Shown here: piece after piece, positions 13,772 through 33,822 of the stretch | Position numbering within the stretch: position 1 is the stretch's first letter | Layout: every line of letters begins with the position of its first letter | Assembly (NCBI GenBank): GCA_030427385.1 | Contig: JAUHWR010000001.1 | Location: forward strand, 434,001-498,000 | DNA length: 64,000 nt | From: Alphaproteobacteria bacterium | GTDB taxonomy: Bacteria; Pseudomonadota; Alphaproteobacteria; Micavibrionales; Micavibrionaceae | Direction of reading: 5' to 3' | The notes under the pieces: model-generated | What the model saw: the letters and a program-made list of their open reading frames with translations, nothing else | What the model was told of the DNA's origin: nothing | Database searches by the model: none | Position numbers and translations under genes: made by a program

Positions 13772-15010
13772 TCAATTTATCTGTTTTAAACGAACGCTCT
13801 CAATAAACTCAGACAAGGACATTAGCCATTCCTGCTGATCCGGTTTGAAAGTCTTGTGCAAAGCTTTTGGTAAAACAAGCTGAAGAGATTCTCTTTGCAT
13901 TTCCTGTGTTTGATTTTCAGAAATTCCCGGCTCCAAAGTGAGCAGGTGCTTGGTTCGAATGCGCCTTGCTTCAGTCAAAACCTGCCTCCATCTGTCCTTG
14001 CAAGTGGATTTTGATCCAAGCATGGTCAAACGTTCCGAAGAAAAACCCATGTCATGGTACTCTTCCTGTCCGGGAAACAAAAAGTCCGGTTTGCTTCGAT
14101 CTTCTGTTAATACACCACGGGCATATTGTATTTTTGTATGAATAAAAATTTCAGCCAAATGGTTTTCCAGAGCGAGTCCTGCCCGAGACTTTCTACGATT
14201 TTGCACACTAAGAGAGAATTTGAGGAAACCATCAACATCCGCCTCTCCTTCATCGTAAAAACCTTTTTCCAAACGATCTTCTACAATATGCCTTTCAAGA
14301 CGTCTGAAAAGATGTTCTTCATGATTAATCCACGCGAGCAACGCATCGTCTGGATCAGAAACCGGATCAATTCCCTGTATTGTTTCTCGGGCGAACGAGG
14401 AAAAAATATCTGTAGTCGGAAATGTTTTGCCGAACCGGGATAACATCAGATCAATGTAATCTGTTTCGGGTTCTTCAGGCTCCAGACCCAGCTCTTCGAG
14501 AATATAGCGAATAGCGAAGTCAGTATGTTCTGAGTGTTCAGTGATTCGGCCTTCAGCAAAAAGCGTTCCGGCACCTGGATTTTTTGGATCGGGAAGGTCT
14601 TCAAGACCGAAGAGCCATATGAGTTGGTTTTCCATGGTAGAAAATGCTTTGGTGGCAATCACCATGAGTGTTCCATCGGGCCGTGTAGCGATAAAAACCG
14701 GATCGGATTCCGACACCATAGATGAAACTGCTGTTCCTTTGAAATATAATCTGTATTCAGAGCGTGTCGGATGATCACGCCGTGCATCATACCAGGTAAC
14801 AAAACCTTCTTCCGTTATGCCTTCCTGCTCCTCTCCAAGCCACACAAATAATGCTTCAAAAGTCTTTGGTTCTTCAGTTCCAAGAAGCTTTTTAAGAATG
14901 TTCGTACCATTAAACTCATGCTGGTTTGACCGGTTTGTATCCGCTTCGACAGCACTGAGACGTTTTGCAACCACGCCATCAAAACATTTTCTTAAAAGGC
15001 CCTCGCTCAT
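13772..15010 (-). CDS. EcoRII-like type II restriction endonuclease
   Basis: 412 residues from the ATG at 15010, close to the size of EcoRII. The C-terminal half has the EcoRII-C nuclease pattern: GLALENHLAEIF, then a Pro-Asp-Phe, then KSTCKDRW and a KHLLTLEPGIS segment, consistent with a PD-(D/E)xK core. The N-terminal half fits the EcoRII effector-binding domain. I chose the start at 15010 because its ATG overlaps the Vsr stop (ATGA) and AAAGGA precedes it; an upstream extension to 15061 is possible. With the partner methylase it predicts cleavage at CCWGG-type sites lacking C5 methylation. Exact specificity is inferred from family only. Confidence 0.88.
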   Translation of the reverse strand: MSEGLLRKCFDGVVAKRLSAVEADTNRSNQHEFNGTNILKKLLGTEEPKTFEALFVWLGEEQEGITEEGFVTWYDARRDHPTRSEYRLYFKGTAVSSMVSESDPVFIATRPDGTLMVIATKAFSTMENQLIWLFGLEDLPDPKNPGAGTLFAEGRITEHSEHTDFAIRYILEELGLEPEEPETDYIDLMLSRFGKTFPTTDIFSSFARETIQGIDPVSDPDDALLAWINHEEHLFRRLERHIVEDRLEKGFYDEGEADVDGFLKFSLSVQNRRKSRAGLALENHLAEIFIHTKIQYARGVLTEDRSKPDFLFPGQEEYHDMGFSSERLTMLGSKSTCKDRWRQVLTEARRIRTKHLLTLEPGISENQTQEMQRESLQLVLPKALHKTFKPDQQEWLMSLSEFIESVRLKQIN

Positions 15011-15462
15011 GATTTTCCTTTTATCAACCCTTTTTTCTCCTGACCCTTGAGCCAGAAACAAGTCTGATCCAGAAGTTTTTCAGGGCTCATTTTACTTTTT
15101 CCTTTCAGCGCACATTCGTATATCTCAAGAACGCGCCACCCTCTCTGCGACAATTCTTCCCGGATTATTGTATCGCGATTCCTGTTACCCGATATCTTTT
15201 CTTTCCAAAAATCCTGCCTGCTTTGCGGCCATTTGAAAAGGTGACAATCATGGCCATGCCAGAAACAACCCTGCACTAGAATGACAGCGCCGTATTTCGG
15301 AAGCACAATATCCGGTTTTCCGGGAAGATCCTTCCTGTGCAAAGAATATCTATATCCCCTGCTGTGAAGGCCTTTTCTTACAAGAATCTCGGGCTTGGTA
15401 TTTTTGCCCCGGATCCCTGACATCATCCGGCTTCTTTTTTCAGGTAAAACAATATCAGCCAC
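15007..15462 (-). CDS. vsr: Very short patch repair endonuclease (Vsr)
   Basis: 151 residues from a GTG at 15462 ([20 protein letters not shown]), which matches the family's usual N-terminus; an ATG 26 codons upstream lies inside the methyltransferase gene. Vsr nicks T:G mismatches created by deamination of 5-methylcytosine in dcm-type sites and starts repair. Characteristic motifs seen are [30 protein letters not shown], and the Cys/His-rich HDC segment. It overlaps both neighbours (8 bp with the methylase, 4 bp with the endonuclease), so all three are one coupled unit. Confidence 0.93.
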
Positions 15463-16717
15463 TTGCAGAAATCTTTTCTTTCCGCGTGCTCTCGACCTCC
15501 TCAACAATAAAGGGTTGCATGTGCTTTGCAACAGCTTCAACCACAGGGACTACGACAGCATTGCCAAATTGCTTATAGGCTTGAGTATCTGACACAGGGA
15601 TCTTGAATTCAGATTGGCCAAAGCAATCAAATCCCATCAGACGGGCGCATTCCCTTGGGGTTAACCTGCGAGGATTTTTTTTGGAGCCACGTGATATTAA
15701 AATCTCCGAACCATCCTTGTAATAACGAGCTGATAATGTTCTTGCCACATCCTCTGGCGTACAGAGACCAAAGCCAAAACCGTTACCTTTGGCTCGGTGT
15801 TTTTCCGCATAATTCTGAAGATAACGCCACAAATGATCAGAAAGTACATATTTTTCTGAAACCTTGGCATTTGTTCCTTCTGTAAACGGCTCTTCAGCGT
15901 TCTCCGATCCGTTTTCAGGATGCAAGACAGATGCAAGAACAGGCCCGTTTTCAGCATCCGGAATGTAAAGGTCATCAAAAGAAAAATCACAATCTTCTCT
16001 AAAACCAGCAATAAAGATTCTCTCCCGGTTTTGGGGAACAAAAGATTTTCCATTAATCACCCTGTAATCAACATGATACCCCAGTTCTTCGGTAAGTGTG
16101 CGATAGATTACCTCGAGGGTCCGACCCTGATCATGACTAGCTAGATTCTTTACATTTTCCAGTAAAAAAGCTCTTGGTTTATGGTGTTCGATTATTCTTG
16201 CCACATCAAAGAACAGTGTACCTTGAGCATCGCAGCGAAATCCATGGAGCCTTCCCAAAGAGTTTTTCTTACTAACCCCGGCTATACTGAAAGGCTGGCA
16301 GGGAAAACCTGCCAACAGTACATCATGACGCGGGATATCTTCGGCCTCGATTTTTGTAATGTCTCCAGCTACATCATGATCGCAAGGGTAATTAGCCTTG
16401 TAGGTCATTTGCGCATATTTATCCCATTCACTGGTGAAGACACACTTGCCGCCAATCAGATCAAACCCCCTGCGGAGCCCGCCAATACCGGCAAACAGAT
16501 CAATGAAAGTAAAGCCGGGTTGGGCGTTACGTCTGTTTTTCTGCGCAACTCGTTCCTGTATGAGATTAATAATTCCCTTTTTAGGCATAGTTTCACCGCT
16601 TTCCCACCTGTAGAGAGTTCTCTCTGACACCCCGAGAATATCAACCAGTTCAGGAATAGTGAGGCCGGAGAGCGCACGGAGAGAGGCAAAATCATGATTT
16701 TGAACAGGGGTAAGCAT
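15455..16717 (-). CDS. C5-cytosine DNA methyltransferase with N-terminal HTH (M.EcoRII/Dcm type)
   Basis: 420 residues. A helix-turn-helix (about 18-45) precedes the methylase: motif [11 protein letters not shown] (71-80), the catalytic Pro-Cys (Cys140) in [14 protein letters not shown] (187-189), QNRERIFI, and a C-terminal RECARLMGF. It methylates cytosine C5 and protects host DNA from the EcoRII-like partner. In the SsoII/EcoRII group such an HTH extension binds the gene's own operator and controls both methylase and nuclease. The promoter at 16747-16774 and nearby palindromes fit that. It is first in the three-gene operon. Confidence 0.95.
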
Positions 16718-20865: not shown

Positions 20866-21471
20866 TCACAATAAATATGACTGATTGAGCTCGCGGATAA
20901 TCTCTTTGCGTTCCTCAATATCGGCCAGAGATATCTGTAAATTTCCAGTTTCATCGATCATACGAATAATCTGCTCGATATGGGAGGCATGCGCCTGGTG
21001 GTACGCTTTAAGAAAAGCGTCATGAGCCTTTTTATACCGCTTGGGGAAAGGCTGCTGGTTCTGGATCATCAGAATATAAGGAATAATTTCAGCCTTTTCC
21101 ATGAACGCGGCGCAGTGCAGATTGCCCTCATCTTTCGGCAGGCCATAGTTTTTATTCACCGCATAATAGGCATTCTTAATTTTCGTATCGCTAAGATCCA
21201 GCCATTCGCCCAGCGCCTGCATGACCTGATTAAAGCTGCTACCGTGCCCGACCATAAGCGCGGCCAGCAGACCGATCCGTTTATCCTGAACATAGGTTTT
21301 GGTCTTGGCCTTCAGATGATGAAGGGCCGCATCACACAACCAGTCGATATCAACATCATATTTCTTCTTCATGACATACGCCGTTGTTTTCAGGGACCGT
21401 ATAAATGAACCCAGATCATGGTCGCCGGATTCATAATCTGCTTTCAGTTTGTCAAATATTTGCGCTGTCAT
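20866..21471 (-). CDS. Hypothetical helical protein next to integrase
   Basis: 201 residues, mostly helical and charged, with no signal or membrane segment. It overlaps the integrase gene by 4 bp (ATGA), so it is co-expressed with it. No family recognised. Its location between integrase and the HTH genes suits an accessory or cargo gene of the element. Nothing in the sequence gives a function. Confidence 0.65.
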   Translation of the reverse strand: MTAQIFDKLKADYESGDHDLGSFIRSLKTTAYVMKKKYDVDIDWLCDAALHHLKAKTKTYVQDKRIGLLAALMVGHGSSFNQVMQALGEWLDLSDTKIKNAYYAVNKNYGLPKDEGNLHCAAFMEKAEIIPYILMIQNQQPFPKRYKKAHDAFLKAYHQAHASHIEQIIRMIDETGNLQISLADIEERKEIIRELNQSYLL

Positions 21472-22535
21472 TTTGCCTCCCCGAAAATTTTCTCGTTCAT
21501 GCTGGCAACAACTTGATGCGTGTGCGCCTCCGACAAATGTGCGTAGCGTTTCACCATCTGCAGCGTTTTATGCCCCAGCACTTCCGCAATCTCCGCCAGC
21601 GTTGCACCGTTCATCGCCAGATAGGATGCTGCGCTATGGCGCAGATCATGAAAACGGAAATCAGTGATTTTAGCGTTGATCAGCGCGTTCTCCCACGCAG
21701 TGCGGATATCAATCGGCTGGCATTTGGATTGGGATGGAAAAACATACTCGCATTTCTTATCCCGCTTTTTGTAATGCGCCTTCATAATCTGGTGCGCGTA
21801 ACCGGCCAGCGGAATGACACGCCGCTCCCCATTCTTGGTTTCATGTAAAATGATGGTGCCGCGCTCCAGATCAATATCTTTCCATTTCAGACCAACAATT
21901 TCCATCTTGCGCGCTCCGGTACTAAGCGCCATCACGACAATTTTGTATAAATGCGGGTTTTCACTGGCCTTGCAGGCTTTCAGTAGCTTTTTCCGCTCAT
22001 CATCCGACAAAAACCGCACCCGGCCGCGCGGCTGTTTCAGCTTTGATATCTTGCGCACAGGATGAATCTCCAGCCACTCCCAGTCATTGATCGCGATGGT
22101 GAACACGTGGCTGAGCGCCGTAACATAACGGTTGGCCGTTGTGGGTCCGCGCGTTCGCCCATATCTGCTTTTACTGCCGACAAATTTATTCCGCGCACTC
22201 ACAATCAAGGCGGGCGTGATATCCGCCAGCGCATAGGCACCAAGCTCCTGATCCCAGTAATCCAGATAGTTGGTTATATTTTTATTGCTGGCCTTCTTGT
22301 GGCTCAGAATTTCCTCGCGGTAACGTTTTATAGCATCGGACAGCGTGAATTTGCGTGCCTGGCTGGTTTTGAAATAACGGCCTTCCCGAATCGCCGCTTC
22401 CGTCTGCTGCACCCAGCGTTTCGCATCGGTCAGGCGCTCAAAGGTCGCAATTTCCTGCGGATGCCCTTTGATCCGTACTCTGGCGCGGTATGAAGCCGAG
22501 CCGTCACTCAATTCTCTTTTTTCGATCGTCGCCAT
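21468..22535 (-). CDS. Tyrosine-type site-specific integrase (element 1)
   Basis: 355 residues. An N-terminal arm-binding/SAM-like part precedes the catalytic domain, with Arg in STGARKMEIVGLKW, HDLRH, then GH and the nucleophile Tyr in KRYAHLS. It integrates and, with an HTH partner, excises the first element. The gene starts 264 bp from the internal tRNA-derived att copy at 22799. It differs from the DUF4102 integrase of element 2, so the two elements have separate origins. Confidence 0.93.
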   Translation of the reverse strand: MATIEKRELSDGSASYRARVRIKGHPQEIATFERLTDAKRWVQQTEAAIREGRYFKTSQARKFTLSDAIKRYREEILSHKKASNKNITNYLDYWDQELGAYALADITPALIVSARNKFVGSKSRYGRTRGPTTANRYVTALSHVFTIAINDWEWLEIHPVRKISKLKQPRGRVRFLSDDERKKLLKACKASENPHLYKIVVMALSTGARKMEIVGLKWKDIDLERGTIILHETKNGERRVIPLAGYAHQIMKAHYKKRDKKCEYVFPSQSKCQPIDIRTAWENALINAKITDFRFHDLRHSAASYLAMNGATLAEIAEVLGHKTLQMVKRYAHLSEAHTHQVVASMNEKIFGEAK

Positions 22536-22770: not shown

Positions 22771-22798
22771 ATGTAACTATTTGATTTGTTTATCAAAA

Positions 22799-22847
22799 AA
22801 TTGGTTGCGGGAGTAGGATTTGAACCTACGACCTTCAGGTTATGAGC
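22799..22847 (-). repeat. att copy: truncated 3' part of tRNA-fMet (49 bp)
   Basis: Identical over 49 bp to 33729-33777, which covers the tRNA 3' end through the anticodon loop. The homology ends at the anticodon-stem position, after which the sequence diverges, so this is not a functional tRNA. It marks the left end of element 2 and the junction with element 1. Confidence 0.93.
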
Positions 22848-22966
22848 GAAGTCAATATATGTTTTACCAAGTGTGCTAAATTACAATAAAACATTGTATT
22901 GACAGTATAATTTAATCATATTAGTTTAATGAAAACTTTTGAAGTTTAACCTTTTTTACGCTATTA

Positions 22967-22987
22967 GGTAGCCCCATGGTAGCCCCA
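22967..22987. repeat. Tandem GGTAGCCCCA pair (left end of element 2)
   Basis: GGTAGCCCCA at 22967 and 22978, an 11-bp period. The same pair occurs at the other end of element 2 (33665-33685). A single inverted TTGGGGCTA also lies at 22732. The pairing at both ends, close to the att cores, suggests arm-type binding sites for the element-2 integrase. Confidence 0.55.
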
Positions 22988-23006
22988 AATTTATTTAGGA
23001 CTTGTT

Positions 23007-23627
23007 ATGATCAAAGAAAATACATGGCTTGCAGACCTTGTAAAAGTATATGAACTTTTGGGGGGAGAGGCTAGATATAGTGATGTTTATGAAGAGGCTA
23101 GAAAGATAAGATTGGCAAGAGGGGCTAGTTGGACTAAGGAGGCTAAGGCCTCTATTCGACGAACTGTCGAAGATCATTCTGAAGACTCTAAAAACTATCG
23201 AGGAAAAGATGTTTTTTATAGTGTTAAGGGTTTGGGAAAAGGGGTCTGGGGTTTGCTGCCAGAGTATAGAGCGAGCATAAACGTAGAAACAAAAAATCAA
23301 AAAAACATTTATGAGGCGGGTATTGAAGGTATAGTTCAAGAACTACATTATTTAAAAAAAACTCGAGATCCAAGGCTGGTTCAAGCCAGAAAGATAAAGG
23401 ACGATTATAAATGTCAAGCTTGTGGTTATAAAAAAAAGGTGGCTGAAGATAAATACATTATTGAAGTGCACCATCTTAACCCTATAGGAAAATTAAGAGA
23501 TATTAATATAACAAGGATAGAAGAACTTATATGCTTATGTCCAAATTGTCACAGAATAGCACATTCTAATATGGACATTCCTCTTAGTATTAATGAAATA
23601 AAAGAAATGCTGAGCAATGGCAAATAA
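23007..23627 (+). CDS. HNH endonuclease with N-terminal winged-helix-like domain
   Basis: 206 residues. The N-terminal about 80 residues look like a winged-helix domain of the type fused to restriction-like nucleases (YELLGGEARYSDVYEEAR ...). The C-terminal HNH fold has a Cys-x2-Cys, an EVHHLNP core with the catalytic His, and CPNCHRIAH as the second zinc knuckle. It is predicted to cut DNA. It lies between att and the integrase gene and overlaps the latter by 11 bp, so the two are coupled. It may be a defence nuclease or assist mobility; the sequence does not decide. Confidence 0.85.
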   Translation: MIKENTWLADLVKVYELLGGEARYSDVYEEARKIRLARGASWTKEAKASIRRTVEDHSEDSKNYRGKDVFYSVKGLGKGVWGLLPEYRASINVETKNQKNIYEAGIEGIVQELHYLKKTRDPRLVQARKIKDDYKCQACGYKKKVAEDKYIIEVHHLNPIGKLRDINITRIEELICLCPNCHRIAHSNMDIPLSINEIKEMLSNGK

Positions 23628-24960
23628 TGTATTTTTAATTTCTCCGAACGATAAATTCAGCTTTACAAAGAAATCGCTCGATGGATTGCCATTGCCTCCA
23701 GAAGGTAAGCGATATTCATTCAAAGATGATAAAGAAAGAGGGCTTATAGTACGTGTAACAGCAAGCGGTCAAAAGACTTTCCAGCTTTATCAAAAATATC
23801 AAGGGCGGCCTGTCCGAGTTACTTTAGGTGTCTACCCCGATATGAGTATTGAAAATGCTCGTAAGGGAGCTTTAAAGGCAAAGGGAGAGCTCGCTGGAGG
23901 AAAAAATCCTAATGTTGAAAAAAATAAACTGAGACAGGAAGTTTCTCTTAAAGAGCTTTTTGTTTTGTATATGGATAGATACAGCAAAATAGAAAAAAAA
24001 TCATGGAAGTATGATGAACGAGAAATACAAAAGTTTTTGTCCCATTGGTTTAACCGTAAAATTTCTGATATCAGCAAATATGAGATCGGGACACTTCATT
24101 TAAAATTGCGTGAAACTAACGGTTTATATCAAGCAAACCGTATTCTTGAGCGTTTGAGGGCTTTGTATAATAAAGCGATAGAATGGGGGTGGGATGGTAC
24201 TAATCCAACCCAAGGTATTAAAAAATTTAAAGAGAAGAGTAGGGATCGTTACATTCGCCCCGAAGAGATGCCTTTATTCATGAATGCGCTCTCAATAGAA
24301 GAAAATGAGGTTGCGCGAGACTTTTTCTATATAGCTTTATTTTTAGGGGCGCGAAAAACAAATACGCTACAAATGAGGTGGGAACAAATTGACTGGCACA
24401 ATCTAACGTGGCGTATACCAGATACAAAAAATGGCGAGCCGGTCGTTGTCCCTTTAACAATGAAGGCGCAAGAGGTCTTAGAAAAACGTTTAAAGCAATC
24501 ACATGGCAATCCGTGGGTGTTTCCAAGTAAAACAAGCAAAGAAGGATATTTTAATGACCCTAAGAAAGCGTGGAACCGCGTAAGGCAACGCGCAACATTA
24601 GAGCTATGGAAGAAAAATCCTCATTATGCTGCATTGATTAATGACGTAGAGAAGACTTTGAATGAGAATAATAATTATAGCTTCACAGTCTCAAAGCTGT
24701 TTAATACAGTAATTGAAGAAGCTGAGAAACGTAAAATAGAGTTGCCTATAGGTTTAATGGATATACGGCTTCATGATATACGGCGAACATTTGGAAGCTG
24801 GCAAGCAATGTCTGGGGCTAGTTTACAGATTATAGGGAAATCCTTAGGTCATAAATCGCAGCAATCAACTCAGGTATATTCCCGACTAGATAATGATCCG
24901 GTTAAGGCCTCAATAGAAAAAGCAACCGCAGCAATGCTGCAATATGCCGAAGGTAAATAA
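23617..24960 (+). CDS. P4-type tyrosine integrase (DUF4102 N-terminus), element 2
   Basis: 447 residues. The N-terminal DUF4102-like DNA-binding domain (KRYSFKDDKERGLIVRVTAS ... VTLGVYPDMSIENAR) is typical of P4-family integrases that use tRNA 3' ends. The catalytic domain has Arg in LGARKTNTLQMRW, HDIRRTFGSW, LGHKSQQSTQ and the Tyr in VYSRLD. It recombines the tRNA-fMet att sites 22799-22847 and 33729-33777. It reads away from the left att, with the HNH gene in between. Confidence 0.94.
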   Translation: MANNVFLISPNDKFSFTKKSLDGLPLPPEGKRYSFKDDKERGLIVRVTASGQKTFQLYQKYQGRPVRVTLGVYPDMSIENARKGALKAKGELAGGKNPNVEKNKLRQEVSLKELFVLYMDRYSKIEKKSWKYDEREIQKFLSHWFNRKISDISKYEIGTLHLKLRETNGLYQANRILERLRALYNKAIEWGWDGTNPTQGIKKFKEKSRDRYIRPEEMPLFMNALSIEENEVARDFFYIALFLGARKTNTLQMRWEQIDWHNLTWRIPDTKNGEPVVVPLTMKAQEVLEKRLKQSHGNPWVFPSKTSKEGYFNDPKKAWNRVRQRATLELWKKNPHYAALINDVEKTLNENNNYSFTVSKLFNTVIEEAEKRKIELPIGLMDIRLHDIRRTFGSWQAMSGASLQIIGKSLGHKSQQSTQVYSRLDNDPVKASIEKATAAMLQYAEGK

Positions 24961-24963
24961 TAG

Positions 24964-25770
24964 ATGCCAGAAAGTATTTTGATTGATAAAGACGATTTGG
25001 AGGTAACTTACGAGAATGAAATTCTTAGGGGTAAAGAGCCAAGCGTGACTTTAAAAACAAAAGATAAGCCTATTTTAAATTACCCTACCAAAGACGGAAC
25101 ATTTGTTACATTTAGAGAGTCAAAGGCCGCTTTTGCACCGAAACCTGACGAATTCCAAAAATTGAGAAAAAAGATATTTCGTATTCTGGGTAAGAAATCC
25201 ACCCCAGAGTTTGATGATAGGCTTAGCTATCTCATCACTTTTTTACGAGAACAAATTTATATTAATGCAACTACACCTTCAGTTACCGCACGCCGCAAAG
25301 AATTATCTCGCTATAAAGACCTTATAAACAACATGATTAATTTCATGGAAAATGATCAATTCAATGATATTAGAGCTGATTTGAGATATGAAATTATGAA
25401 CAAAATGCATGAGACTAACTCAGAAGACGCGGTTTATACTTTATTTCAAAATGCACGGATTGTTGCAGATATGTGTGAATCTGCGTGTGAAAAAATAAAA
25501 GGCCAAAAGCGTACATTTACGCCTAATACTATGAGGAGAATTCTTGCTGAAGAGCTGGCAAGAGAGCTGGATAAAATGGGGAAGTCGCCAACAAAATACA
25601 GAAATGGAAATTATTTTAAAATTCTAAGAGCAACCTTAGAAATGACTCCGTGTACTGTTTATGGAGAAAGAATTTCAATCGGCATTCCTCAAGACTTATT
25701 TAAAATTGCGGGTGAGGCGATTGATACATATCCTAATAAAAAGCCTTATTCACTTTTAGATTTTGATTAA
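24964..25770 (+). CDS. Hypothetical protein downstream of integrase
   Basis: 268 residues, soluble and Lys/Glu rich, predicted mostly helical with a short beta-rich N-terminus. No signal, membrane segment or motif recognised. It starts 3 bp after the integrase stop and so is probably co-transcribed. Base composition is AT-rich like the rest of element 2. Confidence 0.7.
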   Translation: MPESILIDKDDLEVTYENEILRGKEPSVTLKTKDKPILNYPTKDGTFVTFRESKAAFAPKPDEFQKLRKKIFRILGKKSTPEFDDRLSYLITFLREQIYINATTPSVTARRKELSRYKDLINNMINFMENDQFNDIRADLRYEIMNKMHETNSEDAVYTLFQNARIVADMCESACEKIKGQKRTFTPNTMRRILAEELARELDKMGKSPTKYRNGNYFKILRATLEMTPCTVYGERISIGIPQDLFKIAGEAIDTYPNKKPYSLLDFD

Positions 25771-25791: not shown

Positions 25792-27198
25792 CTATAATTT
25801 TTCCTTAGGAATAAAAGTTAACACTCTACGGGTGTCATTATCATTTTTATTATAATTATTCTCTGAAATTATTTCTTCGCCAACTTTAAAAAAGCCTATG
25901 AACCGCCCATCATTGTTTGAATGAAAATTTTTGCCGTTTTCATATTTGAAAATATAATAATCATCTGTACGTAGTGAACAATTTTTACGATTTTTACAAA
26001 CGCCATAGTTACCGATAGAATACTTCCCACCATTTGTATTATTACTACCTTTGATATCTAAATATACAATTTTTCCAGTATTTTCTTTCATAAAGGAATA
26101 GAATGCACCGCCTTTGTCATTCGTATAAATTGTTCCTTTGAGGCTAGGGTAGCCTTTGTTTCTTCCAATATTCGGTTGATATAAACTATCTTTTCTAATT
26201 CCCCATTCATCAAAGTCTTCTGGTTTTTCATTTTTCTTATTTTTATTTAATTTATTCACAATCTCTATTGTATCAGGGTCATCTTTAAAATTTGATAGTT
26301 CATCTTCAGTATATTTTTCAATTTTTAACATGTGAGCAACAATAGAATTGCCATATTTTTTAGTATTGTTTTCATTTGGAAATACATCCAATTCTTTTTT
26401 CTGATAACGTATATCCGTTAAACATTTCCATTCAGGTGCTGAAGAAATAAGCGCACAGCCAATTATGAATTTAGGAAAGATAGGTAATGCGGAGTAGGTG
26501 GCGGAGTATGCTGTCCCTATAACTTTATCTTCTAAAATAAAACTATACTTTATATTTTTTAATTTTTTATTTTTGCCATCAACTTCTTGTTTTTTAATTT
26601 CTAAAATTTTCTTAGTTGGTTTTTCCGGCATACTTAAGCGAGAAATATGGTTAAATTTTTTTGATGAGAAACGGTTTGCAGAAAAACCATACCACCTTAC
26701 ACTATGTATTTGGATCCAGTCTCTCGTGTTGCGTGCTCTTTGAGCTAAATCTTGAGTGGCGAGTCTATGAGAAAAATGTGCTTCAGGAAAATTTGGATTG
26801 GGAGAATATGATACAGGAATTTTGTAATGGTCTGTCATATTGCCACTCATGATTAATGAATGTATTTCAGGATTATATTTTAATATTTCAATAGCATTTT
26901 GAGCTTTCAAATCACTCTCAATTTTCTGTATGTGGTTAAGTTCCAGAAAAAAACACACATAATAAATTGCGTATGGAATAAATGGAATAATTAAGAAAAC
27001 TTTGGAAGTTTTTTTAGTCAAAATATCTATTAGAAAAGCCCCTGCAATTATATGGGGCATAAAACCTACCCAATAAGGAGCAGCAAACATCATCAATATT
27101 ACACCAGTAATAGGAAGCCACTGTAATAAAACCATTAAGGCAAAAGCTACACAGCACCACGTTGTTAGCCAATTAAATGGGTTTGAGATTATTTTCAT
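25792..27198 (-). CDS. Hypothetical membrane protein, element 2 cargo
   Basis: 468 residues. Three or four transmembrane segments lie in the first about 95 residues (LTTWCCVAFALMVLLQWL; PITGVILMMFAAPYWVGF; VFLIIPFIPYAIYYVCFF). A long Asn/Lys-rich soluble domain follows, with several Cys (ending region VCKNRKNCSLRTDDYYIF). No family recognised. It is the only gene in this part on the minus strand and is single, convergent with 24964-25770. A stand-alone membrane cargo gene in a satellite may serve exclusion or defence, but that is inference. Confidence 0.65.
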   Translation of the reverse strand: MKIISNPFNWLTTWCCVAFALMVLLQWLPITGVILMMFAAPYWVGFMPHIIAGAFLIDILTKKTSKVFLIIPFIPYAIYYVCFFLELNHIQKIESDLKAQNAIEILKYNPEIHSLIMSGNMTDHYKIPVSYSPNPNFPEAHFSHRLATQDLAQRARNTRDWIQIHSVRWYGFSANRFSSKKFNHISRLSMPEKPTKKILEIKKQEVDGKNKKLKNIKYSFILEDKVIGTAYSATYSALPIFPKFIIGCALISSAPEWKCLTDIRYQKKELDVFPNENNTKKYGNSIVAHMLKIEKYTEDELSNFKDDPDTIEIVNKLNKNKKNEKPEDFDEWGIRKDSLYQPNIGRNKGYPSLKGTIYTNDKGGAFYSFMKENTGKIVYLDIKGSNNTNGGKYSIGNYGVCKNRKNCSLRTDDYYIFKYENGKNFHSNNDGRFIGFFKVGEEIISENNYNKNDNDTRRVLTFIPKEKL

Positions 27199-27394: not shown

Positions 27395-27595
27395 TTGAAA
27401 ATGAATTCAGTACTTTTAACAAAAGAAGACGTTTCTACGATACTTGGTGTATCGGTTGGAACTTTAGCCGTTTGGCGAACAACAAAACGCTATAACCTTC
27501 CTTACGTAAAAGCAGGGCGTTTAATTCGCTACCGCGAAGAAGATGTAAGGGCTTTCATCAACTCACGCATGCAGGGGGAGGGGGCTCATGTCTAA
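27395..27595 (+). CDS. AlpA/excisionase-like HTH protein, element 2
   Basis: 66 residues of the excisionase fold: LTKEDVSTILGVSVGTLAVW, then LPYVKAGRLIRYREEDVRAF. It is the first gene of the replication operon, with an AGAGG ribosome site, and overlaps the primase zinc-finger ORF by 8 bp. In P4-like satellites AlpA-type proteins couple excision and gene expression. The same role is likely here. Confidence 0.87.
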   Translation: MKMNSVLLTKEDVSTILGVSVGTLAVWRTTKRYNLPYVKAGRLIRYREEDVRAFINSRMQGEGAHV

Positions 27596-27887
27596 AATTC
27601 AGGAAATCAAAGGGTGCATTCCACCTGAAAACTATTACAACGAAAATCTAGCGGGGGCTTTTGGAAAACATACTGGCAACGGTTGGCATAAGTGGAATGG
27701 TCTTTGCCCCTTTCATGCCGACAAAAGAGCTGGCTCCCTCGTTATCAATAAGATGTCCGGTGCTTTTAAATGTTTCTCATGCGGTGTGAACGGTGGCGAC
27801 ATAATAGACTTTCACATGAAAGCCAACGGTTTGAGCTTTAAAGATGCCTTTAAAGAGTTGAGGGGAGAAGTTCAATGCGCGAAGTAA
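27588..27887 (+). CDS. CHC2 zinc-finger primase domain protein
   Basis: 99 residues containing only a CHC2-type primase zinc ribbon: CPFHADKRAGSL ... FKCFSCGVNGGDIIDFHMK, i.e. Cys, His, Cys, Cys ligands. Such domains recognise DNA for primer synthesis and are normally fused to the TOPRIM core. Here the TOPRIM/AAA part is in the next ORF, which overlaps by 13 bp, so the primase is split across two genes that probably act together. Confidence 0.88.
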   Translation: MSKIQEIKGCIPPENYYNENLAGAFGKHTGNGWHKWNGLCPFHADKRAGSLVINKMSGAFKCFSCGVNGGDIIDFHMKANGLSFKDAFKELRGEVQCAK

Positions 27888-29404
27888 TGAAATGGGATTA
27901 TAAAACAAAAGACGGTAACGTAGTTGGACACGTTATCCGCCTTGAATGTGAGAATGAACTTAGCGGCTCAAAATCTCGTAAACAAATCATACCTTACTTT
28001 AAAGAAAATGGTCAATCAGGCATTCCAGACAATTTGTCAAAGGAGCATCGGATTTACGGTTTAGACACTGTAAAAGATTTCTCCAAACCTATATTTATTG
28101 TCGAGGGTGAAAAATGTGCTCATGCCCTCTATGGGCTCGGTTATCAAGCGGTGACCAGTTTAGGAGGATGTGCTCAGGTGCATTTAGCCGATTGGTCATT
28201 CTTGCATCCGGCCAAGATAGTTTATCTCTTGCCTGATTATGATGTGGCAGGTGCTTCATATATGCAAACCGTTTATAACTCTATAAGGCAATTCCCTATA
28301 AGGCCTGACATAAAACTTATTGCATTCAAACAGCATCCAAAAGCCGATATATGCGATTACTTAAAAACGCTTATAGGAAAGAACGGTTGGAATGAACTGG
28401 ATAGTTTGCGCAATCATGCGGAACAAGAGAAGGTAAAGACAGCGTTTGAACAATATCAGACAGATAATGTCGAGGGCATTCCCGCGGCATGGACATTCAT
28501 TATTACAAAGCATAAACACAAGCTGATTTCTGCAAATGATTTTAAGAGTCTAAAGCTTCCCAAACGTAATATGCTTTTATTTCCGTGGTTACCAGAGGGC
28601 TCAATCAACATGATTTTTGCAGATCGAGGCATTGGCAAAACCTTTTTTGCTCTTTCTTGTGCCTTAGCATTGGTAAATGGTGATGAGTTTCTGTGTTATA
28701 AGGCTGAGAAATCCGTTCCTGTGCTTTACCTAGATGGTGAGATGCAGGCTACAGCGATACAAGAGCGGTTGCTTAAGTTATCAGGCGACGGGGAAACCAA
28801 AGCACCCCTGAGCCTTTATACGCCCGACTGTCAGGACAATGACTATACTCCAGATCTAGGCACTGTAGAAGGCCGCGAACAGATCAATGAGCTTATTGAG
28901 GCGGTTAATCCGAAAGTGATATTTATTGATAACATTTCGACCTTCGACCGCACGGGCAATGAAAACGAGGCCGAGTCATGGTCTCCTATTCAAGCTTGGG
29001 CTGTTCAGCACCGTAAGAAAGGGCGCTCTGTTGTCTTTATTCACCATGCGAACAAAGAGGGCAAGCAGCGCGGCAGCCATAAAAAAGAAGACGTTATGGA
29101 TGCTGTGATAAAACTTAAACGGCCTGAAGACTATATTCAGGGTGAGGGTGCAGCAAAAATCCTTGTTCAATATACTAAAGCGCGACATTTAAGCGGTGAA
29201 ATGGCGCAGGACATTGAGGCCACGCTTCATGATGAAGATGGCTCACTTAAATGGAGTTGGGAGCAAGGCGATATTTTGTATAGGCAAGCCGTTAAAATGA
29301 TGAAAGACGGGCTTTCATGCCGCGACATTGCCGAAGAGCTTTCTATAGGAAAGTCAACGGCAGGTCGTTGGAAATCAAAGGCTCAAAGCGAGGGGCTTCT
29401 ATAA
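27875..29404 (+). CDS. TOPRIM-AAA primase-helicase, element 2
   Basis: 509 residues. The TOPRIM motif has EGEK (77-80) and DYDVAG (121-126). The RecA/AAA-type ATPase has Walker A ADRGIGKT (249-256), a VIFIDNIS Walker B and an HHANKEGKQRG segment. The C-terminal helix-turn-helix (GLSCRDIAEELSIGKSTAGR) may bind the origin. With the CHC2 ORF it forms the element's autonomous replication enzyme, comparable to the primase-helicase of P4-like satellites and to the fused protein of element 1. Confidence 0.9.
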   Translation: MREVMKWDYKTKDGNVVGHVIRLECENELSGSKSRKQIIPYFKENGQSGIPDNLSKEHRIYGLDTVKDFSKPIFIVEGEKCAHALYGLGYQAVTSLGGCAQVHLADWSFLHPAKIVYLLPDYDVAGASYMQTVYNSIRQFPIRPDIKLIAFKQHPKADICDYLKTLIGKNGWNELDSLRNHAEQEKVKTAFEQYQTDNVEGIPAAWTFIITKHKHKLISANDFKSLKLPKRNMLLFPWLPEGSINMIFADRGIGKTFFALSCALALVNGDEFLCYKAEKSVPVLYLDGEMQATAIQERLLKLSGDGETKAPLSLYTPDCQDNDYTPDLGTVEGREQINELIEAVNPKVIFIDNISTFDRTGNENEAESWSPIQAWAVQHRKKGRSVVFIHHANKEGKQRGSHKKEDVMDAVIKLKRPEDYIQGEGAAKILVQYTKARHLSGEMAQDIEATLHDEDGSLKWSWEQGDILYRQAVKMMKDGLSCRDIAEELSIGKSTAGRWKSKAQSEGLL

Positions 29405-29428
29405 AGAATTCTATAAAATTTTAACCGT

Positions 29429-29468
29429 GTCCCACTGTCCCCCGCCTTAGGAGACGGGACGGTGGGAC
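29429..29468 (+). terminator. Long hairpin after the replication operon
   Basis: A 13-bp stem with one G-T pair: GTCCCACTGTCCC (29429-29441) pairs with GGGACGGTGGGAC (29456-29468). It is followed by a short CCTTTT. It suits a terminator for the alpA-primase operon. Because it is built from repeated TGTCCC/GGGAC units it could also be a protein binding site. Confidence 0.55.
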
Positions 29469-29501
29469 AGCCTTTTAACTTTAATAAGAAAGATAAAAAT
29501 C

Positions 29502-29873
29502 ATGTATTACGACGAATTAAAAGAAGCCGCAAAACAACCAGCTTTATTAACATCCCTTACAGGGGCTTTAAATCCAGCAGCAATCATCACTGCTTTAGCG
29601 GTAGGAGCTGTTGGAATAGCAATTATTGCTGTTATAAAGGCGCTAAAGAACTGTAACTATAGCGAAGATGATAATTTACTAGAGGTCGAATGTGATGGTG
29701 AGCAAGACTTTGAACTGTACAATGAACCGTTTCCAACCTTTGAATCCAACGGTTCAAATACGGTTGAAAAAATGAGTGATGAAGAACTCCATAAGGAGAT
29801 GATACGGCAAACCATGTCCGAATTAGGCAAAAGAAGCGCTGCAAAGAGAGCACTGAAACAAAAACAAATTTAG
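29502..29873 (+). CDS. Small membrane protein of element 2
   Basis: 123 residues. One strongly hydrophobic segment (about 25-46, PAAIITALAVGAVGIAIIAV) is followed by an acidic middle and a basic Lys/Arg/Gln-rich C-terminus. No family recognised. It stands alone after the hairpin and is convergent with the KAP NTPase gene, 7 bp apart. A single-helix membrane peptide near a KAP ATPase could be a partner or effector, but the opposite orientation makes joint expression uncertain. Confidence 0.6.
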   Translation: MYYDELKEAAKQPALLTSLTGALNPAAIITALAVGAVGIAIIAVIKALKNCNYSEDDNLLEVECDGEQDFELYNEPFPTFESNGSNTVEKMSDEELHKEMIRQTMSELGKRSAAKRALKQKQI

Positions 29874-29880: not shown

Positions 29881-32800
29881 TTATTTATCTTTAGCATTGC
29901 TTATCTTTTTCTGGCCATATACGGATGGATAAGTTTCTTCTAAATACTTTTTAGGCTTACGCCCCTCTATTTTTTCACAAAGTTTCTTTTTGGTGTCATT
30001 ATCTAAATTTGATTTCATAAATTGTGTTAAAGATTGTTCTAAAAGTTGTTTAGTGCTGTCCTCACAGTCTTTTACGATTGACAGTATATCCTCACGTTTA
30101 AAAGATAGTAGGCAATCTAAAAGCTTAGCCTCGCTAGCTTCGAGGGCATTACACATTAAATGTCTAACGTAATTATCCTTTTCTTTTGCTGTGGTGGGCT
30201 TTTGAGCAAGAATTTGTTTTACTGTTTTTTGGGCAAGTCTTCTTGTATTTATTAAACCTTTCTGACTTACGGCTGTTAAATTTTCATGTAGTGTTCTGCA
30301 CCAATCTCCACGTGCTTTTTCTGGTATGGCATTAAATAAATCATCATAATCAACGTCTTCAACATACGTGTCTGTTGGAGTTTGTAGTTCTTGAATTATA
30401 AATTTTCGTAATGCTGTTTTGTAGTCATTAGTGTTAATCTGGAAGTCAGAAATATCAATGATTTCAAAAAATAATTCTAACGCATGTTCTGCCTTTGTTA
30501 GCGCATTGTCCCACTCGGATAACGGCATGTTTGAATATTCTTCTTGAATGCATGTGTAAAAAGCATCCCATCCGTCTGTTAAATATGGTTTTGAATCTGT
30601 AAGTAAGCCAACTGGTACTTCTGTTAATTCAACTTTCTTCAATGCGTCTTTATCAATGCATTGCGCATAGTTTTGTAAAAACACACCATATTCATTATCT
30701 AAGGTGCGTTTTAAATATTCATATTCTTTTAGGGCGGTAGCTAATGGTATTCTTGGCACTGTTTTGTTAGCTAGGGCTTCTTTGATAACTAAATCAACGA
30801 GTGGGTCCTTATTTGCTGATCCATGTCTGATCCAAGCAGAAATATTTAAATCTTTTCTAACATTGCTGCCGATTAATGCATATTGGTCACTATTTAAAAG
30901 AACTTCACCTTTGTTTATTTTTTGCAGCCAACTATGGCCTTTAGCCTGCTCCGCTTGCTGAGTACCTTGCTTTTGCTGATTGGTTTGTGGCAATTCTGCT
31001 GACATAGAGTGCTGTCGTAACAAAAAGATTAATTTAGGTAGTGCATCATCGTCATCAGATTCTTCCTCGTAGAACTCGGCCAACAATTTATAAAAATCAC
31101 CATTAGAAAATAATTCTTTTAGCTCTATATTTTTTCTCTCATCAGCCTCAACATGTAAGTAAATTTGATGTAGTCGCTCAATAAAAGCTTCCAAATCGTT
31201 TACATCTTCACATTTTCCTTGTGTAAGTTTTTTAATAACAGCATTTGCAGTTTTTATCCAATCACCATCTGTAACCAAGCTTTTATTGCGCATTAATTCT
31301 CCAAAGATTTCTTCGCAATTGGTCGGATTGCCGCGGATATGCTCAATGAGGTCGTTGTCTTCGCTGGATAAGTCGATATGGATATGGTCTAGTTTATTTA
31401 TGTGGATACCCGCTTGTTTACAGACGGATGCCATGCCTAAGGTGTAGCTACTTGTCTCTTTAGGCATATCGGACTTTTGTAGTAGTGCCTGAACATCAAT
31501 ATCAGAATTTCTTGAGTTTAGAGCATCATTAAGGGTGCCAACATACAACATGAAAGCTTTACCATCCTCAAAGCCAGCTTTCTCTTTGTCTAAAAATGGC
31601 TGCAAAGATTTTTCAAGAATATTGGAGGCTAAGCTTTCTAGTCGATCCTCTGAACATATATCTATGAAAGCAAAATAATCTCTATCTTTATCGTGCGCAT
31701 CAATAAGCATTGAAGATGATACCAGAGCATCAATAAGCTCATCTTTGATGTGCGTGGTTGCTTCACCATCATACTTTTCAAAAAGTATTTTGAAATTTAT
31801 AGCTACCTGATCTAGCTCTTCCTGTGCGATCCAGTCAGAAATTTTATTTTCCACCACTTCATTTATTCTGGATTCAAAACCTGGAGAGCCGGATAGCTTT
31901 ATTAGCTCTTCGGAATTATTAGAGCTTGCAGCTGAGGCAAGTTCATCATCAAGCAATAATTGAAAGGCGAGTTCGCTATCAACGTTGAAAAGTATTGCTG
32001 CTAAATGTTTCTCGTAGCTTTTGTCTTTAGAAATTTTATACAACTTGCTATGTAAGTTGTCGCGTTGCAGCTTTAAACTTGTAAGAATTCTTGGTTCTTT
32101 TTCAATATCTTCTCTTTGTGCAATATAGCAAGCCACCGTAACAATCGGTATTTTTCCTTTGTGCATGCAGTAAATACTGCTCAATTCATTAATAAATGTG
32201 ATAATACGCCGTGGAGTGAACTTTCTTTCAGTTTTTTCTAGATATGCATTTAAAACTAAATAGGCTCCATACATTTCTTCTGTCTTGGAAAACGTTGGGA
32301 GTGCCTCTTTAAATTTTTCATAAAAGAACTCTTTTGTATTTGACATCACTGGTGGTGAAACAAATAAAATTTCATTGAAAGTTTTTGAAAATAGCTCTTC
32401 TTTTTCAGGCGTCTTATTCTCTTGGTTTTTACTGCCATCGACATGGTTTCTGTCAAACGGCATAATTACAGTAATTGCTGTCTTTTCATCAGTGTTTTCA
32501 GAAAGTTCCTTTGAAAAGGAATTTCGGGCAAATATTGATCGTGCGATAGACCAGTATTCGCTCAGTTCATCCGAGGGGATGCGGTCGATATTATCTAAAA
32601 CTAATACCACGCGATTATTTTCATCTTGGATTAATTTCAAAATTTCATGAAATGTGTTTTGGAACTCAAAATCATTTGGATCAGTTTCCCTAATATGTTG
32701 TGTGATTTTTTGGTCTGCATATTGCTTAGACGTGATTAAAAGGGTTCTAGACAAAGCCATTCCATAAGTGATCATGTCCTTCTGAGACGATACCAAATTA

Positions 32801-33405
32801 TGTTTTCGGCATTTTACGGCTGCCACAATCAAGGTTGTGATTACAAAAAAGATCAAAACCAGCATTGGCATAGAGAGTATAAAGTCGACACTGTTAAGCT
32901 TGGTGTCTTTATATTGCTCCTTCGCCCAGAAATAGAAAATTGGTAAGAAAGGAAGCGATAGCAATATAAAAAAGCCATACAGGTCCAGAATAGGGTTGCT
33001 ATTCGTGGTGACATCCTTGGTTTTTGATGAAACCTTCTTTTCTATCTCGTTTAATTTAGAGCGCTGTTTCGGAAATTGTTCTTTAGCCCAGCAAATAAAA
33101 AATTCAAGAAAGGTTCTTCTAAATGCAGCTCCTTGTGACTTCCATATATCAAAAGTACAGAAGTGATAATTGATAGCCTCGCCGTTACTGGCCTTTGTTT
33201 TTAGCTTTTTTTGAGCAATATCAATTACTGTGGATTTTCCACTGCCCCATGAGCCATCAATGCCGATAGCACGATCTTTATCTTTAAATTCAATAATAGC
33301 TTGAGCAAGTGCTGTTGCGGTTCGACTGTGTCCACCACCACTGAACTTATCTTTGGATACAGGTTCGTCTAATAATATTATGCGCTTAAGCTTATCTTCT
33401 GGCAT
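29881..33405 (-). CDS. Large KAP-family P-loop NTPase
   Basis: 1174 residues. Walker A GSWGSGKST (51-59), two transmembrane segments inserted in the P-loop domain (about 142-161 and 174-197) and Walker B VVLVLDNIDR (266-275) define the KAP family, in which the membrane insertion is characteristic. The remaining about 800 residues are helical and acidic, with no recognised domain. KAP NTPases occur in phage exclusion (PifA) and in defence operons such as Qat, where they are thought to organise membrane-bound complexes. Here it is a lone gene beside the tRNA end of element 2, the usual place for cargo. Anti-phage function is inference. Confidence 0.88.
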   Translation of the reverse strand: MPEDKLKRIILLDEPVSKDKFSGGGHSRTATALAQAIIEFKDKDRAIGIDGSWGSGKSTVIDIAQKKLKTKASNGEAINYHFCTFDIWKSQGAAFRRTFLEFFICWAKEQFPKQRSKLNEIEKKVSSKTKDVTTNSNPILDLYGFFILLSLPFLPIFYFWAKEQYKDTKLNSVDFILSMPMLVLIFFVITTLIVAAVKCRKHNLVSSQKDMITYGMALSRTLLITSKQYADQKITQHIRETDPNDFEFQNTFHEILKLIQDENNRVVLVLDNIDRIPSDELSEYWSIARSIFARNSFSKELSENTDEKTAITVIMPFDRNHVDGSKNQENKTPEKEELFSKTFNEILFVSPPVMSNTKEFFYEKFKEALPTFSKTEEMYGAYLVLNAYLEKTERKFTPRRIITFINELSSIYCMHKGKIPIVTVACYIAQREDIEKEPRILTSLKLQRDNLHSKLYKISKDKSYEKHLAAILFNVDSELAFQLLLDDELASAASSNNSEELIKLSGSPGFESRINEVVENKISDWIAQEELDQVAINFKILFEKYDGEATTHIKDELIDALVSSSMLIDAHDKDRDYFAFIDICSEDRLESLASNILEKSLQPFLDKEKAGFEDGKAFMLYVGTLNDALNSRNSDIDVQALLQKSDMPKETSSYTLGMASVCKQAGIHINKLDHIHIDLSSEDNDLIEHIRGNPTNCEEIFGELMRNKSLVTDGDWIKTANAVIKKLTQGKCEDVNDLEAFIERLHQIYLHVEADERKNIELKELFSNGDFYKLLAEFYEEESDDDDALPKLIFLLRQHSMSAELPQTNQQKQGTQQAEQAKGHSWLQKINKGEVLLNSDQYALIGSNVRKDLNISAWIRHGSANKDPLVDLVIKEALANKTVPRIPLATALKEYEYLKRTLDNEYGVFLQNYAQCIDKDALKKVELTEVPVGLLTDSKPYLTDGWDAFYTCIQEEYSNMPLSEWDNALTKAEHALELFFEIIDISDFQINTNDYKTALRKFIIQELQTPTDTYVEDVDYDDLFNAIPEKARGDWCRTLHENLTAVSQKGLINTRRLAQKTVKQILAQKPTTAKEKDNYVRHLMCNALEASEAKLLDCLLSFKREDILSIVKDCEDSTKQLLEQSLTQFMKSNLDNDTKKKLCEKIEGRKPKKYLEETYPSVYGQKKISNAKDK

Positions 33406-33664
33406 TGTTAATTTCCGTCATAATTAAAAAACCTCTTACTCAGTCTTTTGGATAAAAATAAGAATTAATATTGTTGTAATAATTGTTACTTTTGCAAAAT
33501 ACATAGCGAAGTTAGCATGCTCAGTTCTAGTTTAGATAGTATTTTTGCATCTCAATTTATATAAAAAAAGCAATTAATTACTTCGCAAGCCTAATTGGTG
33601 GACTAATGAGATTACTATCACCTTGAGAAAGTCTTGCAAAGCTTGTGTGAAAATGGGGATTTTG

Positions 33665-33685
33665 GGTAGCCCCAAGGTAGCCCCA
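33665..33685. repeat. Tandem GGTAGCCCCA pair (right end of element 2)
   Basis: GGTAGCCCCA at 33665 and 33676, again with an 11-bp period and the same orientation as the left pair at 22967; the two blocks differ at one base. The 326 bp between the KAP gene and the tRNA hold only this pair, the terminator and AT-rich DNA without an ORF. Confidence 0.55.
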
Positions 33686-33690
33686 AGCCA

Positions 33691-33715
33691 AAATAAAAGC
33701 CGCTCGAAAGCGGCT
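33691..33715 (-). terminator. Rho-independent terminator of tRNA-fMet
   Basis: On the minus strand AGCCGCT-TTCG-AGCGGCT is followed by TTTATTT, 17 bp beyond the tRNA 3' end. The stable tetraloop and T-run make this a convincing terminator. It belongs to the element-2 end, since the tRNA 3' part was replaced at insertion. Confidence 0.75.
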
Positions 33716-33728
33716 AAGTCATTGAAAT

Positions 33729-33808
<80 letters not shown>

Positions 33809-33822
33809 ACGTTTGAGAGGGG

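What the first reader, a model, noticed from the sequence alone, without database searches (positions are those of the whole stretch)
29881..33405. Lone giant KAP NTPase as satellite cargo
The 1174-residue KAP protein has a complete P-loop with two membrane helices and about 800 unassigned residues. KAP NTPases in known defence systems (QatA, PifA) come with partners or are smaller. This one is alone beside the tRNA, in the position where satellites carry anti-phage genes. The C-terminal domain may be a new sensor or effector.
Basis: partly seen in the sequence, partly recalled or inferred. Interest (0 to 1): 0.6.

Follow-up and report, generated by a model that had tools for sequence, protein, structure and literature searches.

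The report
Tmn-like KAP defence gene in element
A small mobile element parked at a tRNA gene carries, in an exchangeable slot where its relatives carry other anti-virus genes, a single large membrane-anchored ATPase that is most likely an anti-phage defence protein of the same general kind as the known Tmn system.

Summary
Window 29881-33405, minus strand, encodes an intact 1174-residue KAP NTPase with a complete P-loop and two membrane helices between Walker A and Walker B. It stands alone, 327 bp from the 3' end of tRNA-Met. It lies in a 10.93-kb integrative element bounded by 53-nt direct repeats of that tRNA's 3' end, with an integrase and primase-helicase but no detected capsid, terminase or relaxase gene.

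Seven same-family genomes (window included) have tRNA-Met elements sharing integrase or replication genes. The tRNA-side gene differs each time: KAP, Dsr1-type SIR2, DUF4297-nSTAND3, PifA-like KAP plus VRR nuclease, cll/beta/capP, DUF262/NsnA-like, and one unknown. DNA homology stops on both sides of it. This is a cargo slot that mostly holds defence genes. Large KAP homologues elsewhere are patchy, often on plasmids, prophages and islands, some beside Gabija, SIR2-HerA or PD-Lambda-1.

The claim that a lone KAP is without precedent fails: Tmn is a KAP NTPase with two membrane segments and proven anti-phage activity. I could not obtain a Tmn sequence, so membership is untested. The C-terminal 750 residues form a HEAT-like helical solenoid without a specific fold match. 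Best reading: membrane-anchored, STAND-like single-gene defence. "Satellite" remains unproven.

The parts
29881..33405 (-). KAP-family P-loop NTPase, 1174 aa, single-gene cargo
   Evidence: ORF; Pfam KAP_NTPase 1.8e-13; full-length homologues
33232..33255 (-). Walker A, residues 51-58 (GSWGSGKS)
   Evidence: invariant G-x-x-G-x-GKS core in alignment A3
32815..32991 (-). two membrane segments, residues 139-157 and 179-197, inserted between Walker A and B
   Evidence: hydropathy, helices in model, present in homologues
32581..32616 (-). Walker B region, residues 264-275 (DNIDR signature)
29884..32133 (-). C-terminal all-helical solenoid, residues 425-1174
   Evidence: AlphaFold2 model of this part alone, mean pLDDT 81.4
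33725..33777 (.). attachment-site copy at the tRNA (overlaps the 3' part of tRNA-Met)
   Evidence: 53-nt direct repeat
22795..22847 (.). distal attachment-site copy; far end of the 10.93-kb element
   Evidence: 53-nt direct repeat, 98%
33732..33808 (-). tRNA-Met (CAT), integration target
   Evidence: ARAGORN, Rfam tRNA 64.8 bits
33662..33686 (.). paired GGTAGCCCC repeats, putative integrase arm-type sites at the tRNA end
   Evidence: also near both ends in L059 and at the tRNA end in L063
22964..22988 (.). paired GGTAGCCCC repeats, putative integrase arm-type sites at the distal end
23007..23627 (+). HNH endonuclease-like protein, 206 aa
   Evidence: PHROGs HNH 8.8e-10
23617..24960 (+). tyrosine integrase, 447 aa
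   Evidence: PHROG integrase 1.3e-55; 76% identical homologue in sibling element of G089
24964..25770 (+). hypothetical protein, 268 aa, chassis gene
   Evidence: homologue in the same place in L059
25792..27198 (-). AT-rich (31% GC) protein of 468 aa with an N-terminal hydrophobic stretch; possible second cargo
   Evidence: no counterpart in L059; no family match; GC
27401..27595 (+). small AlpA/excisionase-like HTH protein, 64 aa (inferred from sequence)
   Evidence: sequence; 81% DNA match and homologous reading frame in L153
27588..27887 (+). DnaG-type zinc-ribbon protein
   Evidence: Pfam Zn_ribbon_DnaG 3.9e-15
27875..29404 (+). Toprim/AAA_25 primase-helicase, 509 aa
   Evidence: Pfam AAA_25 3.2e-25, PHROG primase/helicase 5.5e-25
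29502..29873 (+). small membrane protein, 123 aa, chassis gene flanking the cargo slot
   Evidence: homologues 66% (L063) and 36% (L059) in the same place

Best explanation
A single-gene, inner-membrane-anchored anti-phage defence protein carried as exchangeable cargo by a tRNA-Met integrative element. Shown: intact KAP NTPase with two membrane segments inserted in the NTPase domain; a C-terminal 750-residue helical solenoid in the model; lone and convergent to the element's replication genes; location in a slot whose other occupants are mostly recognised defence genes; patchy homologues, many of them mobile or beside defence genes. Inferred: the NTPase works like a STAND/RdrA-type switch. In the resting cell the protein sits at the membrane in a closed state. 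The solenoid (or DNA/protein binding by it) senses a phage component, ATP binding drives ring formation through the KAP domain, and the membrane-embedded part then stops infection, either by blocking DNA entry or replication at the membrane or by permeabilising it and aborting infection. The element gains by protecting its host, and possibly itself or a helper, from competing phages.
For: Cargo slot: blastn against sibling elements matches on both sides of the KAP gene and not within it (L063: 28907-29842 at 76% and 33665-33808 at 83%; L059: 28481-29469 at 71% and 33665-33816 at 81%). Slot occupants are Dsr1 (7.5e-94), DUF4297/LmuA-nSTAND3 (4.6e-14 and 6e-08), PifA-like KAP (3.6e-22) + VRR_NUC, cll/beta/capP (1.1e-51, 1.2e-46, 2.2e-30), DUF262/NsnA-like (3.5e-54). 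A second, different element, in Micavibrio sp. UBA6212, has the same layout at tRNA-Gly with a KAP homologue next to the tRNA. Homologue neighbours: Gabija GajA/GajB 2.6e-270/4.2e-242 and type I RM; SIR2/HerA 1.7e-220/1.3e-296, PD-Lambda-1 5.6e-222, PDC-S06 7.8e-236; prophages L010 and L018 and L021. Rare: 4 of 104 family genomes, 2 of 385 class genomes. NTPase model closest to RdrA of RADAR (Z 14.9, 293 aligned, rmsd 6.6), also Orc/Cdc6 (Z about 14), Apaf-1 and Avs3 (Z 11.6-11.7). KAP relatives act in defence: Tmn (PMC11846954); QatA binds DNA and assembles as a heptamer or octamer (PMC13279940).
Against: No experiment. PADLOC profiles match only the first ~130 residues, at family level (PifA 1.6e-11, QatA 1e-6). 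One slot occupant (786 aa in L061) matches nothing. RdrA-like Z values are shared with many AAA+/ORC proteins, so they show fold, not function. Two of eight homologues found in the genome collections (L032, L033) show no evident mobile or defence neighbour. Membrane topology and oligomerisation are only predicted. QatA is dispensable for part of Qat activity, so KAP NTPases are not always effectors.
Confidence: 0.72

Rival explanations
1. The KAP protein serves the element itself: it excludes a second copy or competitor of the same element, or regulates or interferes with a helper phage, rather than defending the host broadly.
For: It lies inside the element next to the attachment site. Tandem integration at this tRNA does occur: a second integrative element with its own integrase and EcoRII-like restriction gene abuts it. 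PifA-type KAP proteins are plasmid-borne exclusion proteins (own knowledge).
Against: Slot occupants of sibling elements are unrelated defence families, which fits general cargo better than a conserved element function. Homologues sit on plasmids, prophages and islands with quite different backbones.
Confidence: 0.15
2. It is a non-defensive membrane scaffold or ATPase, a fitness or housekeeping gene, that happens to be mobile.
For: KAP NTPases as a family also have cellular roles in animals (own knowledge); two chromosomal homologues (L032, L033) lack defence neighbours.
Against: Patchy distribution, repeated pairing with defence genes, swap with Dsr1 and other defence genes in the same slot.
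Confidence: 0.08
3. The element is not a phage satellite but a plain integrative element that never travels in virions, or is a decaying remnant. The KAP gene may still be defensive. (This rival concerns the carrier, so it is compatible with the best explanation.)
For: No capsid, terminase, relaxase or P4 psu/sid genes among its proteins. No match to the primase-helicase in sequenced phages beyond generic similarity. The one viral contig with a close integrase (L153) is a Mu-like phage lying next to another copy of the element.
Against: All ORFs are intact. Sizes are tightly clustered at 9.1-10.9 kb, as expected if a capsid limits them. The gene set int, HTH, primase-helicase, cargo resembles P4 and PICI satellites.
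Confidence: 0.4

Closest known systems
Tmn (TmnA), single-gene KAP NTPase defence system (Gao et al. 2020; PMC11846954)
   Same: KAP-family P-loop NTPase with two membrane segments; one gene; anti-phage activity shown in E. coli.
   Different: No Tmn sequence could be fetched, so identity and C-terminal homology are unknown; host is an alphaproteobacterium; cargo of a tRNA-Met element.
QatABCD (QatA)
   Same: [quoted passage not shown] PADLOC QatA profile matches residues 46-111 (1.1e-06).
   Different: QatA profiles are about 600 positions long and the protein works with QatB, QatC, QatD; no such partner gene stands beside the window gene.
PifA (F plasmid)
   Same: KAP-like NTPase that excludes a phage; best PADLOC profile for this protein (1.6e-11, residues 12-144).
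   Different: PifA profile is 720 positions and only the first ~140 match; the window protein has a far longer C-terminal solenoid.
RdrA of RADAR
   Same: Best structural match of the NTPase domain (Z 14.9, 293 residues, rmsd 6.6); large NTPase plus helical C-terminal part.
   Different: RdrA acts with the deaminase RdrB and has no reported membrane insertion of this kind (own knowledge); no deaminase gene here.
Defence hotspots of P4-like satellites and P2-like phages (PMC9122126, PMC8628076)
   Same: Small integrative elements with an exchangeable segment between conserved genes that holds diverse defence genes.
   Different: No psu, sid or delta genes found; primase-helicase is of AAA_25/Toprim type; slot lies between the replication genes and the tRNA, while the integrase is at the far end; several single cargo genes are larger (3.5-4.2 kb) than the 2.6-kb average P4 hotspot.

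Membership tests
KAP P-loop NTPase family | KAP NTPase domain above Pfam gathering score | tested here: met
   PF07693 50.8 bits, cut-off 20, residues 30-412
[quoted passage not shown]
   segments 139-157 and 179-197 between Walker A (51-58) and Walker B (264-275); shared by homologues
Tmn | single KAP NTPase gene with two membrane segments and no partner | tested here: met
   definition from PMC11846954
Tmn | sequence homology over the full length with a validated Tmn protein or the DefenseFinder Tmn profile | not testable with these tools
   no Tmn sequence or profile could be reached; two E. coli searches with relatives found KAP genes in only 8 of 5426 genomes, none identifiable as Tmn
Tmn | blocks phage infection | not testable with these tools
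   needs bench test
QatABCD | QatB, QatC (QueC-like) and QatD (TatD-like) genes in the operon | tested here: not met
   no such neighbour; gene is monocistronic and convergent with its neighbour
QatABCD | QatA equivalog score | tested here: not met
   NCBIfam QatA 23.9 bits against cut-off 600
PifA | PifA profile matched over its length | tested here: not met
   only profile positions 7-140 of 720 matched
P4-like satellites | psu, sid, delta, epsilon and alpha homologues with an integrase (PMC8628076) | tested here: not met
   integrase present; none of the others found by Pfam or PHROGs scans of the element proteins. The short 27401-27595 ORF (possible AlpA-like) was not scanned
Phage satellite (general) | packaging in capsids of a helper phage | not testable with these tools
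   no virion data; no packaging gene seen
Integrative element with defence cargo slot | attachment-site direct repeats, integrase, conserved backbone, variable cargo at one place | tested here: met

The most novel reading that the evidence does not exclude
The element belongs to an undescribed family of phage-satellite-like elements in a Micavibrio-type alphaproteobacterial lineage. It has a cassette-like defence slot at the tRNA end that usually takes one large STAND-, SIR2- or KAP-type gene at a time, and the KAP protein is a membrane-anchored sensor-effector in which a HEAT-like solenoid detects phage through a mechanism not yet described for any KAP system.
Probability: 0.3. Interest if true: 0.7.

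Novelty: new variant of a known kind. Interest (0 to 1): 0.52.

Why it matters
If right, the tRNA-proximal slot of this element family is a finding aid for defence genes in a lineage labelled after predatory Micavibrio: each sibling element carries a different gene there, and at least one occupant (786 aa in L061) has no known family. It also gives a set of about 20 lone, membrane-anchored KAP proteins of 1074-1246 residues spread over alpha- and gammaproteobacteria and a Firmicute plasmid, on which the unsolved mechanism of Tmn-type defence (where the sensor is, what the membrane part does) can be studied by comparison.

Tried and rejected
Tmn reference sequence: Gao 2020 and Aravind 2004 are not held; E. 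coli searches with two gammaproteobacterial KAP genes gave only IncHI2-type and a few island copies; an Enterobacteriaceae genome search needed a handle I did not have. No phage record in INPHARED encodes a relative of the window KAP or of the L021 KAP. No PDB sequence match. Helper-phage idea from viral contig L153 (integrase 80% identical): its other end carries MuA/MuB-like genes (read from the ORFs), so it is a Mu-like prophage beside another element copy, not evidence of a helper. Empty-site comparison with the one same-genus genome failed: its homologous contig has no tRNA-Met in that place. Fold searches with the C-terminal solenoid return only generic helical repeats (Foldseek best E 7.8e-4 to a karyopherin, VIA Z at most 7.6), so no fold-based function was assigned. 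Promoter- and terminator-like matches were at chance level.
Full report
THE OBSERVATION. The ORF at 29881-33405 lies on the minus strand, starts with ATG, encodes 1174 residues and has no internal stop. Pfam's KAP_NTPase model matches residues 30-412 at E 1.8e-13. Walker A is GSWGSGKS (51-58) and the Walker B stretch reads VVLVLDNIDR. Two hydrophobic segments (139-157, 179-197) lie between the motifs, the arrangement for which the KAP family was first described (title of Aravind et al. 2004, cited in PMC11846954). No partner is present: the next gene on the other side (29502-29873, plus) is convergent and ends 7 bp away, and the 327 bp to the 3' end of tRNA-Met hold no conserved ORF.

THE ELEMENT. 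The 3' end of tRNA-Met (33732-33808, minus) is duplicated as a 53-nt direct repeat at 22795-22847 and 33725-33777, spacing 10,930 bp. Inside each end lies a pair of GGTAGCCCC repeats (22964-22988 and 33662-33686), which I read as integrase arm sites (inference; the same paired motif recurs near both ends of the sibling element in L059 and at the tRNA end in L063). The element holds an HNH protein, a tyrosine integrase, a conserved 268-aa protein, an AT-rich 468-aa protein, a small HTH protein that looks like AlpA or an excisionase (read from the sequence), a DnaG-type zinc ribbon, a Toprim/AAA_25 primase-helicase, a 123-aa membrane protein and the KAP gene. GC is 0.368 against 0.449 for the host side. 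No capsid, terminase, relaxase or P4-type psu/sid/delta gene was seen.

THE SLOT. I searched 104 genomes of the same family for the integrase and the primase-helicase and read the loci. Elements at tRNA-Met that share integrase or replication genes, with the gene that sits between the replication genes and the tRNA, are: the window, KAP; L059 (G089; integrase 76%, primase 69%), a 1280-aa SIR2 protein matching Dsr1 at 7.5e-94; L063 (G034; primase 81%, integrase not on the contig), a 1388-aa DUF4297/LmuA-like plus nSTAND3 protein (4.6e-14; nSTAND3 6e-08); L066 (G058), cll/beta/capP (1.1e-51, 1.2e-46, 2.2e-30); L070 (G081), a 757-aa PifA-like KAP (3.6e-22; Pfam KAP 6.6e-25) with a VRR_NUC protein; L167 (G088), a DUF262/NsnA-like 898-aa protein (3.5e-54) plus a 565-aa protein with a weak pAgo-profile match (8.8e-11); L061 (G009), a 786-aa protein with no match. 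So six of seven occupants, counting the window's own KAP, match defence families. Attachment-site copies are found at both ends in L059, L061, L066 and L070, giving elements of 9.4-10.4 kb.

THE SWAP IS VISIBLE IN THE DNA. blastn of the window element against L063 matches 28907-29842 (76%) and then only 33665-33808 (83%). Against L059 it matches 28481-29469 (71%) and then 33665-33816 (81%). Nothing matches in between. The KAP gene is therefore exactly the segment that has been exchanged. A different element in Micavibrio sp. UBA6212 shows the same layout at tRNA-Gly: the tRNA 3' end is repeated over at least 40 exact nt 9.1 kb away, a KAP homologue lies next to the tRNA and the integrase at the far end. 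In viral contig L014 a tRNA-Met 3' fragment and GGGGCTACC repeats also stand directly before a KAP homologue.

HOMOLOGUES. The gene is rare: 4 of 104 genomes of the family, 2 of 385 of the class, 4 of 398 of the phylum at the limits used (counts include the own genome). The nearest relatives are in Rhizobium plasmids, Shimia and viral contigs (31-35% over the full length), not in the same family (19-22%); the tree groups the window with those at 100/100, so the gene has moved between lineages. Nineteen large KAP proteins of 1074-1246 aa, from alpha- and gammaproteobacteria and a Thermaerobacter plasmid, keep Walker A, DN[IL]DR and one or two detectable membrane segments. Neighbours include GajA/GajB plus type I RM (L030), SIR2-HerA and an integrase (L019), PD-Lambda-1 between transposition genes and a recombinase (L026), PDC-S06 (L027), an MkoC-like gene (L025), prophage genes (L010, L018, L021). 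Caution: the viral and plasmid collections are biased to mobile DNA. Among eight copies taken from genome collections, five have an integrase or recombinase in the fetched region and two (L032, L033) show neither mobile nor defence genes.

STRUCTURE. AlphaFold2 with eight sequences gave mean pLDDT 73.6: an NTPase domain with inserted membrane helices, followed by an all-helical part. The closest solved structures for residues 9-462 are RdrA of RADAR (Z 14.9, 293 residues, rmsd 6.6) and Orc/Cdc6 proteins (Z about 14), then BrxC, Apaf-1 and Avs3 (Z 11.6-12.0). These share a fold; this does not prove function. The C-terminal 750 residues modelled alone reach pLDDT 81.4 and form a helical solenoid; matches are generic karyopherin/HEAT-type proteins (Foldseek best E 7.8e-4; VIA best Z 7.6, in the range expected for any helical repeat).

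WHAT IT MOST LIKELY IS AND DOES. A single-gene anti-phage defence protein at the inner membrane, working as a STAND-like switch: solenoid senses, KAP domain binds ATP and assembles, membrane part executes. The defence role is supported by slot, neighbours and family; the sensing, assembly and membrane steps are inferred. Support by analogy: Tmn, a KAP NTPase with two membrane segments, blocks T2, P1 and other phages, and a single mutation in a phage DNA-modification gene lets phages escape it (PMC11846954); purified QatA binds DNA and forms hepta- or octamers (PMC13279940).

KNOWN OR NEW. Whether the window protein is a Tmn by sequence could not be tested. What appears undescribed in the papers I could search is the element family with its defence slot; as a kind it resembles the P4 and P2 hotspots (PMC9122126, PMC8628076) with a different backbone and slot position. 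I rate it a new variant of a known kind.

Noticed in passing
window 1-22847 and G000:C1:427237-427284: A third copy of the tRNA-Met 3' end lies about 6.8 kb left of the window, so a second integrative element of about 29.6 kb (integrase at 21468-22535, minus) sits in tandem with the KAP element at the same tRNA.
   Followed up: partly
window 2086-9981: The tandem element carries an RND-type efflux set (AcrB-family pump, CusB/HlyD-like adaptor with heavy-metal-binding domain, outer-membrane protein) and an amino-acid permease.
   Followed up: partly
window 10711-16717: The tandem element also carries an AAA_13 ATPase matching the PADLOC candidate PDC-S06 (2e-93) with a 192-aa companion, and an EcoRII-like restriction enzyme with a C5 cytosine methylase.
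   Followed up: partly
window 25792-27198: AT-rich (31% GC) 468-aa ORF with an N-terminal hydrophobic stretch, on the minus strand between the integrase and primase blocks; absent from the sibling element L059; no family match. Possible second cargo gene.
   Followed up: no
L061 12943-15303: 786-aa protein without any family match in the same tRNA-side cargo slot; candidate unknown defence gene.
   Followed up: partly
L153 (IMGVR_UViG_3300036767_001243) and L173: Viral contig of 37 kb combines a Mu-like phage (MuA/MuB-like and tail genes) with an integrase 80% identical to that of the KAP element and its HTH gene; probably a Mu-like prophage inserted next to another copy of the element.
   Followed up: partly
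L023 4034-7267 (IncHI2 plasmids): A 1077-aa lone KAP gene is nearly identical in about 130 enterobacterial plasmid records, chiefly Enterobacter, in several of them interrupted by IS3 elements.
   Followed up: no
L026 4992-9849: On Yersinia ruckeri plasmids a KAP gene is directly followed by a PD-Lambda-1 gene between Tn7-like transposition genes and recombinases.
   Followed up: no
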